The position numbers and the translations under genes were made by a program. From Owenia fusiformis (lineage: Eukaryota > Annelida > Polychaeta > Sabellida > Oweniidae): a DNA stretch of 64,000 bases. The notes under the pieces were generated by a model. That model searched no databases. It was given only the letters and a program-made list of their open reading frames with translations, and was not told where the DNA came from. Positions 9,001 to 15,000 of the stretch are shown here, piece after piece. The stretch covers positions 11,906,348-11,970,347 of the forward strand of contig CAIIXF020000006.1 in assembly GCA_903813345.2 (NCBI GenBank), given 5' to 3'. Position 1 is the stretch's first letter, and each line of letters opens with the position of its first letter.

Positions 9001-12000
9001 TAAGTGTGAGGTACCAACATATGTTTTATCAACACTGTTGCTGGGAATGTCTAAATCTTGACATCACATGACATCGACAGGTCACAATAGTCTTGAATTA
9101 AACTGGTTGCAACTGGGCATTTTGCAATATTTATTTTGTAAATATTTGTGTAGTCTTTTGGTGATGAGATAAGATTTTTTTATTCCATATTAGGTGTACA
9201 TTCACACATTTTTAACAATTACAAATATACTGGTATGTAATGCCTAAAATATGAGGTAAGATGATAATGAGACCTCAACTCAAATCCCACCCATGAATGC
9301 GACCGTTTGATTGGTTCAGAGCAGGTAACGTTATGACCACACCTACCAATATGACCGTTTGATTGGCTTAGAATAGGACTAGGATGACCCTCTGATGCAA
9401 GTGTTTCATTGGTTCAACAATTGTAGAACTCAAGATTAACTCAAAACTGCATTATTGCATTGATTTTATTTTGATCGATGATACACATTTAAATTTTTAC
9501 AGTTCATTGGAGTATGAGTGTCGTGTAGGAATCAGAACAATGAACTATATCAACAACACCTTTATATATACAGGGTGGGCCAAAAAATTTTGCAACTTTT
9601 TTAAAAGGCTAGAAAAGTATCAAAACATAAGGGTATTGCCATAAAAAATTATTTACAGGAACTTAAGGATAGCCATATTTTACCATTTAAATACTAAGGC
9701 TGAACTGGACTTCAATTTTTTTTATCAAATCTTTGAATATCAATGGTCTATTGTTCATGTGTCCGAGATTTACCGTTTTTCCTAGAAAATGTTTAATTTA
9801 TGTGATCAACAATAACACATTCATTATGTTCACTAAATCTGTTACAATCTTAGATAACTGTTCAACCAATGTCTAGTACAGTTTATATCAGTATCTAGTC
9901 ACTATGATATTATGTATCTATTGATTATTTATTAAACAAATTTTATGCATCCACCTTTCACCTTCTCTACAGCGCACAAGGAGACATGGGCGGAACTGGT
10001 CAATGGCGCGATCCAGCGATTCTTGTGGTAGTTCTCTCCACTTCTCCTGCAGAACTTCTTTTAGTTTAACAATAGTTTGTGGGTGATTACCATTAACTGC
10101 AATAAGCTGCTCCAGGTGCCCCCAATGGTGATAGTCACAGGAGTTGGCATCTGGGGTATTTGGCAGCCATTCATCAGGACTAATGAATCAAGGCTTATTC
10201 TCCTCCAGATATTCCAAAGTGACTTTTGCCCGATGGCTGGGAGCGATAGGGAAGGTGAAAGGGGGATGCATAGAACATTTGTTTAAAATATAATTAATGA
10301 ATACAATATAACATAATACCATAGTGAGTAGATACTAATATAAACTAGACATTGAGGTAGACATTGTTTAAACAGTTATCCAAGATTGTAGCAGATTTAG
10401 TGAACATTATGAATGTCTTATTGTTGATCACATAAAATCATAGAAAGTCACATTTTCTAGGAAAAATGGTAAATCTCGGACACTTGAACAATTGACCATT
10501 GATATTCAAAGATCTGACAAAAAAATTTGAAGCCAGGTTTAGCTTTATCATTTGACTGGTAAAATATGCCTATCCTCAAGTTTCTGATCTGCGCTACCCT
10601 TATGTTTTGATACTTTTCTAGCCTTTTAAAAAAGTTGCAAAATTTTTTGGCCCACCCTGTAGTATACAATACATTTTGTTCAAAATACCAAGAAATGTTG
10701 AAGATTAAAACTACCAACTAATGGGACTATTGTAAAACTGATGCACCTAAAATATAAATGCATCTCCTGCGCCAGTGACCTTACTTCAACATGTACATTT
10801 TTGTTTGGCATCTTATATAAAGTCTATTATCTAAGACAAATGGTTCTTTATTCATACAGCATTCAGATCTGCACAATGATAGCGCTTGAAAACACTGTTC
10901 ATAAACTGATTAATAAAATAATCAATAATGTGAAATTCTCTTTTGGCTAATGTCTGAGTGTACAAATGAAATTCCGTCTTTTTCTCAACCTCGTTTGGTT
11001 TGGAAAAATAAATGTCATAATCAATAGGTGCAAATATGACACCTTTTGATTGCAGGCTGTCTATCTTTTCTTTTACATGTGGTTGTTCTTCCCCAATAGT
11101 GAACTTACTGGTAAAGGTGACACCATCAGTGTAGAGTACGATCAATTTTCCCCTGGATATACTGAACGTACTGAAAATGCAATAAACAATTGAAAAATGG
11201 TTGAAAGACCATCAGTGTAGAGTACGATCAATTTCCCCCTGGATATACTGAACGTACTGAAAATTCAATAAACAATTGGAAAATGGTTGAAAGACCATCA
11301 GTGTAGAGTACTATCAATTTGCCCCTGGATATACTGAATATACAGAAAATGCAATAAACAATTAAAAAATGGTTGAAAGACCATCAGTGTAGAGAATGAT
11401 CAATTTGCCCCTGGATATACTGAACATACTGAAAATGCTATAAACAATTAAAAAATGGTTGAAAGACCATCAGTGTAGAGTACGATCAATTTGCCCCTGG
11501 ATATACTGAACTTACTGAAAATGCTATAAACAATTAAAAAATGGTTGAAAGACCATCAGTGAAGAGTACGATCAGTTTGCCTCTGGATATACTGAACGTA
11601 CAGAAAATGCAATAAACAATTAAAAAATGGTTGAAAGACCATCAGTGTAGAGTACGATCAATTTGCCCCTCGATATACTGAATGTACATAAAAATGCAAT
11701 AAACAATTAAAAAATGGTTGAAAGACCATCAGTGTAGAGTACGATCAATTTACCCCTGGATATACTTAACATACTGAAAATGCAATAAAGAATTAAAAAA
11801 TGGTTGAAAGACCGTCAGTGTAGAGTACAATCAATTTGCCCCTGGATATACTGAACTTACTGAAAATGCAATAAACAATTAAAAAATGGTTGAAAGACCA
11901 TCAGTGTAGAGTACGATCAATTTGCCCCCGGATATACTGAATGTACTGAAAATGCGATAAACAATTAGAAAATGGTTGAAAGACCATCGGTGTAGAGTAC

Positions 12001-15000
12001 GATCAATTTGCCCCTGGATATACTGAACATACTGAAAATGCAATAAACAATTAAAAAATGGTTGAAAGACCATCAGTGTAGAGTACGATCAATTTACCCC
12101 TGGATATACTTAACATACTGAAAATGCAATAAACAATTAAAAAATGGTTGAAAGACCGTCAGTGTAGAGTACGATCAATTTGCCCCTGGATATACTGAAT
12201 GTACAGAAAATGCAATGAACAATTAAAAAATGGTTGAAAGACCATCAGTGTAGAGTACGATCAATTTGCCCCTGGATATACTGAACATACTGAAAATGCA
12301 ATAAACAATTGGAAAATTGTTGAAAGACCATCAGTGTAGAGTACGATCAATTTGCCCCTGGATATACCGAACATACTGAAAATGCAATAAACAATTGGAA
12401 AATGTTTGAAAGACCATCAGTGTAGAGTACGATCAATTTGCCCCTGGATATACTGAACATACTGAAAATGCAATAAACAATTGGAAAATGTTTGAAAGAC
12501 CATCAGTGTAGAGTACGATCAATTTGCCCCCGGATATACTGAATGTACTGAAAATGCAATGAACAATTAAAAAATGGTTGAAAGACCATCAGTGTAGAGT
12601 ACGATCAATTTGCCCCCGGATATACTGAATGTACAGAAAATGCAATAAACAATTGGAAAATGTTTGAAAGACCATCAGTGTAGAGTACGATCAATTTGCC
12701 CCTGGATATACTGAACATACTGGTTGAAAGAGTAATTGGAACTATGACTTAAATAGTTGGCAGTTTCTACTCGTCATCTCTTATCTTATATACAAATATA
12801 TCTTTACATTGGGAACTTACTTTGTCACAGGGAAGTACTTTTCCATATTATTGTCTATCATAGCGAGTGCATCTGTTGTATTTGCTTGAATTATATTTTT
12901 GCATGCTGCAGACTTCTTAGGGAGACCTCTTAAGTCTATTTTGCTGTAGTCTCTCAAGAACTCACTGGCACTCTTCAGTGGGATCAGTTCCTTAGCTTTC
13001 TAGGGAGCATATAAATAAAATTATTAATTAATGTGACATAAAAATAAAACATTGAATTAATGTGACATAAAAATAAAACATTGAATTAACGTGACATAAA
13101 AATAAAACATTGAATTAATGTGACAACCACCCCTTCTAACATCACAATTTAGTAGTATGAGGGTTAATATTGCCTATTTGGCAATAATTGTAGTTGAATT
13201 GTAAAAATGATTTATAATACCACAGCTATCTTTTTAGGTTATGGATCACATTATTTTTGTCCTTAATATAGCATGCATCTTAGTCAGTAAACATTGGCCC
13301 AATTCTCCCTTACGTTAATTTTAAATCTCAAAACATAAAAGCTTCAGCATATGACAATGTAAACACTTAATTGTATAATTTGCATATTTTGAAAAAGTTC
13401 ATTGATAACTCACTGCGCTATATGTTAGTAAGGCTATTTTAGTTTGTCCTTCACTTTTTAACATGTCAGCTAAGATTATTATACTATGATTTACTGCATC
13501 CAGCAACACATCTGCTATAGTGCATGAGTTTTGCACAATAAACACAACATCCACACAAAATGGACCTAAAATACAAAATGCAATGTTATATTTTTCTGAT
13601 TAAAATTTGTGTCACATTACTTTTTAATATGTAGACTAAGAGCATTCAAGAAGATATATTTTTGAGATCTCATGTAGCCCTACTGTATGATAAAGCCCAA
13701 CTGTACTATAAAGACTAAATTAGCTCTTATAAAGCCTAAATATATTATAAAGCTCAACTGTACTATAAACAATAAATTAGCTCTTATAAAGCCTAAATAT
13801 ATTATAAAGCTCAACTGTACTCATACACTCAGCTGTACCATAATGCCCAATTAAACTATAAAGCCCTACTCTATGATAAAGCCCAACTGTACTATAAAGA
13901 CTAAATTAGCTCTTATAAAGCCTAAATGTATTATAAAGGTCAACTGTACTCATACACTCAGGGGTACCATAGTGCCCAATTAAACTATAAAGCCCTACTG
14001 TATGATAAGGCCCAACTGTACTATAAAGACTAAATTAGCTCTTATAAAGCCTAAATGTATTTGCCAAAGAAGCTGTTCATATTACCTTCGGATACAGGAT
14101 GTCCTGATGTTATCTTTAGGGGGCGCCCCGTAACGAATCTACGACCTGTTGTTGTTGATCTAATATTTCTACAGATTGCTTCTTGTATTAATTGTTCTTG
14201 AATATAATTTCTTATTTAAGTTTTCTAGGCTTCTAATTATGTTTATTAATTGTTTCATATCTCATCTCAGCTCAGGTTCTCATTATACTCTCTCTCTAAC
14301 TCTATCTCTGAGGTCAACTGAACTTCTACTAACTGCCTGTAACTTTTACTCTACTAATTAATCTTACTATTTCACACTTACTTATAAATTGGCTTAATAT
14401 CTATACTAACTTCTTATAATTACTCTGTTTACATCACAGTATTATAAAGCCCAACTGTACTCATACAATCAGCTGTACCATAATGCCCAATTAAACTATA
14501 AAGCCCTACTGTATGATAAGCCTGAATTAGTACTATAAAGCCTAAATTTATTATAAAGCCCAACTGTACTCATACAATCAGCTGTACCATAATGCCCAAT
14601 TAAACTATAAAGCCCTACTCTATGATAAAGCCCAACTGTACTATAAATACTAAGTTAGCTCTTATAAAGCCTAAATGTATTATAAAGCCCAACTGTACTC
14701 ATACAATCAGCTGTACCATAATGCTCAACTAAACTATAAAGCCCTACTGTATGATAAGCCTGAATTAGTACTATAAAGACTAAATTAGCTCTTATAAAGC
14801 CTAAATTTATTATAAAGCCCAACTGTACTCATACAATCAGCTGTACCATAATGCCCAATTAGATTATAAAGCCCTACTGTATGATAAAGCCCAACTGTAC
14901 TATAAATACTAAGTTAGCTCTTATAAAGCCTAAATATATTATAAAGCACAACTGTATTCCTACACTCAGGTGTACCATAATGCCCAACTAAACTATAAAG

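What the first reader, a model, noticed from the sequence alone, without database searches (positions are those of the whole stretch)
11131..12726. Array of 18 decoy 3' splice sites made from the gene's own exon border
Each 86-bp unit contains the 3' end of intron 4 of VWA paralogue A plus the first 31 coding bases of its last exon, which encode the conserved [10 protein letters not shown] strand. Only the copy at the downstream end continues into the full exon; every other copy reaches a stop six codons later. The gene must therefore pick the last of nineteen near-identical acceptors, or it makes truncated proteins. Tandem growth across a splice border inside a gene that still looks intact is unusual, and could regulate the gene or be slowly killing it.
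Basis: seen in the sequence. Interest (0 to 1): 0.85.

Follow-up and report, generated by a model that had tools for sequence, protein, structure and literature searches.

The report
Repeated splice-border array in secreted gene
Nineteen tandem copies of one intron-exon junction sit inside an otherwise intact animal gene; repeats of this kind are known from lancelets and humans, but here even the copies that should be useless vary almost only in ways that leave the encoded protein unchanged.

Summary
The array is real. It has 19 tandem units on the minus strand (12730-11122), each holding the 3' end of intron 4 and the first 31 coding bases of the last exon of a five-exon gene with a VWA domain (253 codons, frame intact). 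Only unit 19 runs on into the exon.

The kind is known. Border-spanning minisatellites are called "mirages" in lancelet genes, where splicing is reported normal; in human genes such repeats can change splicing. Tandem arrays are common in this genome (15.6% of a 190-kb sample), so one meeting a splice border is not very surprising. I saw no sign of gene decay. Which acceptor is used cannot be told without RNA.

One result was unexpected. In the 18 upstream units, 9 of 11 distinct exonic variants are synonymous (site permutation P = 0.0015) and the other two conservative. Simple decoys should drift freely. Either the units were recently copied from working alleles, or they are still constrained, or this is chance.

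The parts
11122..12730 (-). array of 19 tandem 86-bp units, each with the intron-4 3' end plus the first 31 exon bases
12671..12730 (-). unit 1, lacks 26 bp including the pyrimidine tract and the first AG; intron flank upstream
11208..12670 (-). units 2-18: upstream (decoy) copies, each followed by a premature stop
11122..11207 (-). unit 19: the working copy of the border, continuous with the last exon
10852..11152 (-). exon 5 (last exon) of VWA gene A; stop TGA overlaps AATAAA
12821..12999 (-). exon 4 of gene A; donor AAA|GTAAGT, phase 2
13414..13565 (-). exon 3 of gene A (start of the VWA domain)
14086..14145 (-). exon 2 of gene A (inferred from phase and splice signals only)
17100..17169 (-). 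exon 1 of gene A (inferred from phase and splice signals); the translation looks like a signal peptide (judged by eye)
18801..19077 (-). last exon of paralogue B, same intron position, no array
19308..19468 (-). exon 4 of paralogue B

Best explanation
This is a 'mirage': a minisatellite whose 86-bp unit happens to span the 3' splice border of intron 4 in a VWA gene whose product is probably secreted. It arose by tandem duplication between ...TACT|CTTTCAACC in the intron and ...GATGGT|GTC in the exon (inferred from the two ends), and grew and turned over by unequal exchange (inferred: units 4 and 5, and units 8 and 12, differ by one base). Only unit 19 is joined to the exon body and so can encode the full protein (shown by sequence). 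The 18 upstream units become part of a longer intron when unit 19's acceptor is used. I infer that most transcripts do this, as reported for lancelet mirages, and that use of an upstream unit gives a truncated VWA domain. The excess of synonymous variants in the upstream units most likely means that they are recent copies of working borders, some taken from other alleles, rather than long-neutral decoys (inferred).
For: Unit structure and borders. Gene A is intact: five exons, four GT-AG introns, phases agree, 253 codons without a stop; VWA hit E = 1.6e-5 for exons 3-5. An AG at the same codon position in paralogue B and in 7 of 10 candidate paralogues; none of the 10 short loci has an array of period 20 or more. 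Tandem arrays are common here: 14 TRF arrays of period 50-300 with at least 5 copies in 190 kb, in 8 of 19 pieces. Published lancelet mirages repeat intron 3' end plus exon 5' part, with RT-PCR suggesting normal splicing. Upstream units: 9 of 11 distinct exonic variants synonymous, pN/pS 0.057; over all 19 units, pi 0.100 at third codon positions, 0.021 and 0.011 at first and second, 0.079 in the intron part.
Against: No RNA, no second individual and no related species could be examined, so splicing and length variation are untested; in human genes, repeats at exon-intron boundaries can change splicing. Simulated turnover within one lineage never gave so many synonymous variants (0 of 79 runs with 8-14 variants reached 9/11), so recycling alone does not explain that signal; import from other alleles was not simulated as a population, only as a simple mixture. 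The synonymous difference between upstream units (pS 0.153) is high for allelic diversity. Each of the three AGs is lost in some units (AG1 in 5 of 18, AG2 in 1 of 19, AG3 in 3 of 19), not what strict descent from working borders predicts.
Confidence: 0.68

Rival explanations
1. The upstream units are functional now: their 31 coding bases are kept by selection because alternative use of their acceptors makes needed products, such as short VWA isoforms.
For: pN/pS 0.057 in the 18 upstream units. In simulation, constraint on all units gives S of at least 9/11 in 8 of 19 comparable runs, against 0 of 79 without it. Every unit keeps an in-frame AG2 or AG3. Human boundary repeats can give alternative splicing.
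Against: The tail after GGT is not conserved: the early stop is lost in 6 of 18. AG3 is lost in 3 units. Truncation would remove the rest of the domain after the [10 protein letters not shown] strand. It is hard to see why 18 copies would each be needed.
Confidence: 0.13
2. Slow death of the gene: the decoys capture splicing and the gene is becoming a pseudogene.
For: Units 2-18 have AGs and pyrimidine tracts like those of the working copy; 12 of the 17 have a TTTTAAT-like branch-point motif that the working copy itself lacks. All 18 upstream units end in early stops.
Against: All five exons are open with correct phases. A against B gives pN 0.355, pS 0.71 (dS near saturation). Unit 19 keeps all three AGs. 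Lancelet mirages are reported to splice normally.
Confidence: 0.09
3. The synonymous excess is chance, and the array is a neutral minisatellite with no exchange with working copies.
For: Only 11 distinct variants at 9 sites of 31. I noticed the pattern while reading, so the test is after the fact.
Against: P = 0.0015 by site permutation; P = 0.0035 for private internal variants alone (7 of 9), and 0.0065 if the unit-16 codon counts as one non-synonymous event. The true frame gives 9 S, 2 N in whole codons; the five other frames give at most 6 S, 6 N.
Confidence: 0.25

Closest known systems
'Mirages' in lancelet (Branchiostoma) genes: Adh3, globins BflGb6 and BflGb9, troponin C, PGBD5
   Same: Minisatellite-like tandem duplication of an intron-exon border; in BflGb6, as here, the intron 3' end plus exon 5' part; the authentic border is kept; many but not all repeats keep the splice signal (PMC3087553, PMC3902484; passages read)
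   Different: 19 units here against the 2-7 given in the passages read for globins and PGBD5; sampled G+C 0.355 and 12 large contigs do not look like a lancelet (my recall of lancelet genomes); the synonymous excess is not mentioned in the passages I read
Minisatellites at exon-intron boundaries of human duplicated genes (PMC2812944; passages read)
   Same: Tandem repeats at exon-intron boundaries, expanded minisatellites
   Different: There units average 30 bp and 4 copies and can be retained in exons or make novel introns; here 86 bp and 19 copies, with no new intron apparent
Intron gain by tandem genomic duplication (Rogers model; AGGT requirement recalled)
   Same: Tandem duplication inside a gene that copies splice signals
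   Different: Needs AGGT in the duplicated exon; the array's sense strand has none
Tandem (NAGNAG-like) alternative acceptors (recalled)
   Same: Within the consensus unit three AGs lie 9 nt apart in the same frame
   Different: Spacing is 9 nt, and the larger array repeats whole borders 86 bp apart

Membership tests
mirage (border-spanning minisatellite) | tandem repeat unit spans an intron-exon border and includes the splice site | tested here: met
mirage (border-spanning minisatellite) | authentic border kept at one end, gene intact | tested here: met
   unit 19 and five open exons
mirage (border-spanning minisatellite) | many but not all repeats keep the splice dinucleotide | tested here: met
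   AG3 in 16 of 19 units
mirage (border-spanning minisatellite) | does not disturb normal splicing | not testable with these tools
   no RNA data
mirage (border-spanning minisatellite) | copy number varies between haplotypes | not testable with these tools
   one assembly only; the array probe has one place
mirage (border-spanning minisatellite) | host is a lancelet (where the name has been used, in what I read) | tested here: inconclusive
   species not named; sampled G+C 0.355, 12 large contigs
Rogers-type intron gain | duplicated exon segment contains AGGT | tested here: not met
   0 AGGT in 1609 bases of sense strand
VWA domain protein (gene A) | passes the Pfam VWA cut-off | tested here: met
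   25.7 bits against 23.8; the exons 4-5 part of B gave no VWA hit

The most novel reading that the evidence does not exclude
The array is not a row of dead decoys but a store of working splice borders. Units pass between the working position and the array, perhaps between alleles, often enough that purifying selection on the protein is visible in copies that cannot encode it where they now stand; or the upstream units are themselves used.
Probability: 0.3. Interest if true: 0.72.

Novelty: new member of a known kind. Interest (0 to 1): 0.42.

Why it matters
It is a large (19-unit) mirage, probably outside the lancelets, and so a natural test of how the splicing machinery chooses among near-identical acceptors with in-phase exon starts. 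The synonymous excess, if it holds in other individuals, would show that a minisatellite can be kept in a coding-like state by exchange with its one working copy, and would give a measurable rate for that exchange.

Tried and rejected
Rejected: assembly stutter (the 18 full units differ); a dispersed satellite (one place only, a lower bound); upstream units as internal micro-exons (31 nt would shift the frame; no AGGT and only two GTAAGT in the array, at 11860 and 11515); AG1 or AG2 as the ancestral acceptor (in B and in the 7 of 10 loci that gave output the AG lies immediately before the strand equivalent to GKLIV, matching AG3); coding on the other strand (frame table).

Led nowhere: naming the host. 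PF00115, PF14830 and PF01814 gave no match in the genome. Mitochondrial contigs may be missing; PF14830 rang in no control; PF01814 rang in 7 of 14 controls, but exon-split genes can be missed here. Size and the 12 large contigs resemble the annelid Owenia fusiformis (505.8 Mb, 12 scaffolds; PMC9977687, passages), but this is not established, and the missing hemerythrin speaks mildly against it (that annelids usually have one is recalled). A search for an allelic contig with a piece of C13 found that piece's own end and dispersed repeats only. Pfam on single last exons of 4 candidate paralogues: 0 of 4 over the VWA cut-off, one weak VWA match at E = 0.097. Literature: 9 searches ran. The listings were read as listings, except four papers of which I read passages (PMC3087553, PMC3902484, PMC2812944, PMC9977687). 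Whether such arrays are reported in other invertebrates was not settled.

Full report
WHAT IS THERE. On the minus strand, 12730 to 11122, lie 19 tandem units. The consensus unit has 55 intron bases (CTTTCAACC..., a T-rich tract, then three AGs 9 nt apart) and 31 exon bases, G + GGC AAA TTG ATC GTA CTC TAC ACT GAT GGT = [10 protein letters not shown]. Unit 19 alone continues into the exon ORF to the stop at 10852; an AATAAA overlaps the stop. Unit 1 lacks 26 bp, including the tract and the first AG. The array occurs once in the 498-Mb genome as far as the search sees. The 18 full-length units are all distinct.

THE GENE. Five exons (17169-17100, 14145-14086, 13565-13414, 12999-12821, 11152-10852) join with GT-AG introns and matching phases into 253 codons. 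The start reads like a signal peptide (by eye). Exons 3-5 match Pfam VWA at E = 1.6e-5, 25.7 bits against a cut-off of 23.8 (the query read four residues past the exon-3 donor). Exons 1 and 2 rest on phase and splice signals alone. Paralogue B lies upstream; its exons 4-5 gave no VWA hit in Pfam, so its name rests on similarity to A (36%, E = 2.7e-9). A against B over exons 4-5: pN 0.355, pS 0.71, which suggests constraint on both since they split, though dS is near saturation. The domain's usual metal-site start (DxSxS, recalled) reads VQNS in both A and B, so this is not recent decay of A.

IS THE BORDER REAL. In B the acceptor is CAG|T GGG AGG. Ten loci elsewhere were fetched as distant candidate paralogues (weak matches, best E of each locus 0.002-0.9). 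Seven gave the motif and in all 7 an AG lies directly before the exon start at the same codon phase; the other 3 gave no output with my motif. Single last exons of 4 of them do not pass the Pfam VWA cut-off (0 of 4). None of the 10 loci, 0.9-1.8 kb each, has an array of period 20 or more.

'A stop six codons later' holds for 12 of 18 upstream units; 6 of 18 read 21 codons after GGT before a stop. AG3, the homologous acceptor, is intact in 16 of 19 units; AG2 in 18 of 19; AG2 or AG3 in 19 of 19; AG1 in 13 of 19 (unit 1 has none). A TTTTAAT-like branch-point motif is present in 12 of 19 units and absent from the working unit 19, so simple sequence strength does not explain a choice of the last acceptor.

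HOW COMMON. In 19 pieces of 10 kb taken at round-number positions, 15.6% of bases lie in arrays of period at least 20 and at least 3 copies. There are 14 TRF arrays of period 50-300 with at least 5 copies, in 8 of 19 pieces; one piece is nearly all array, and some neighbouring arrays may be one. In the window the figures are 9.1% and 3. Arrays must often meet genes here.

KNOWN KIND. [quoted passage not shown] BflGb6 repeats the intron 3' end plus exon 5' part, 6 and 3 units in two haplotypes, and RT-PCR suggests that they do not disturb splicing. PMC3902484 (passages) adds PGBD5 and troponin C. PMC2812944 (passages) describes minisatellites at exon-intron boundaries of human duplicated genes, where they can generate alternative splicing. 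The Adh3 paper itself is not held. The present array meets the mirage features that could be tested.

THE UNEXPECTED PART. If the upstream units were simple decoys, their 31 exon bases should change freely. Instead, of 12 distinct exonic variants in the 19 units 10 are synonymous (11 and 9 without unit 19). The two others, V to I (unit 16) and Y to F (unit 14), are conservative and match residues of paralogue B. Expected synonymous share: 25-35% depending on transition bias. Site permutation within base class: P = 0.0014 for all 19 units, 0.0015 for the 18 upstream units. Variant-level permutation: 0.00025 for all, 0.00065 without unit 19, 0.0035 for private internal variants (7 of 9), 0.0065 with the unit-16 codon as one event. 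In the true frame, whole codons only, 9 S and 2 N; the other five frames give at most 6 S, 6 N. Pi over all 19 units: 0.100 at third positions, 0.021 and 0.011 at first and second, 0.079 in the intron part. I noticed the pattern before testing it, so the P values are somewhat flattering.

WHAT COULD MAKE IT. Simulated turnover with constraint only on the working copy gave synonymous shares of 0.28-0.40 and reached 9/11 in 0 of 79 runs with 8-14 variants (9 settings of 60 runs each); constraint on all units reached it in 8 of 19 such runs (3 settings of 60 runs). A simple mixture calculation shows that the variants must have spent little of their age (below about 30%) free of constraint. Recent copying from working borders of several alleles would do this; so would direct use of the units. 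Against the first: pS 0.153 between upstream units is high, and AGs are lost freely. Against the second: the tails after GGT are not conserved. I prefer the first, weakly, and keep chance as a serious rival.

VERDICT. A genuine border-spanning minisatellite of a published kind, large and probably outside the lancelets, with one unexplained property worth testing in other individuals.

Noticed in passing
6955-7050, 7436-7552, 27125-27517, 27637-27921 (+): MyTH4 and RhoGAP exons on the plus strand flank genes A and B: both VWA genes appear nested, antisense, in a large intron of an ARHGAP39-like gene (name recalled). That the flanking exons belong to one gene is inferred.
   Followed up: partly
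13008-13125, 13676-14061, 14439-15776: Other minisatellites crowd gene A: a 29-bp array starts 9 bp from exon 4, and exon 2 lies between two arrays of one 129-bp family, 25 bp from the nearer.
   Followed up: partly
9569-10661: A 1.1-kb element with inverted arms, the outermost 67 nt and 100% complementary, around an ORF at 9921-10187 (-) that resembles the end of a Tc1/mariner transposase (recalled; no Pfam hit at E up to 0.01), just downstream of gene A.
   Followed up: partly
20022-20279 (-) and 13414-13565 (-): Both paralogues read VQNS where the MIDAS Asp is usual (recalled), so the pair may share a lost or changed metal site.
   Followed up: no
G000 contig C9, 8.76-8.92 Mb: A cluster of weak matches to gene A on both strands (E 0.002-5), with last exons of similar layout: possibly a cluster of distant VWA relatives.
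   Followed up: partly
1375-1474 and 2716-2832 (+): Short tandem repeats inside the long ORF 1079-3550, i.e. possibly coding repeats.
   Followed up: no
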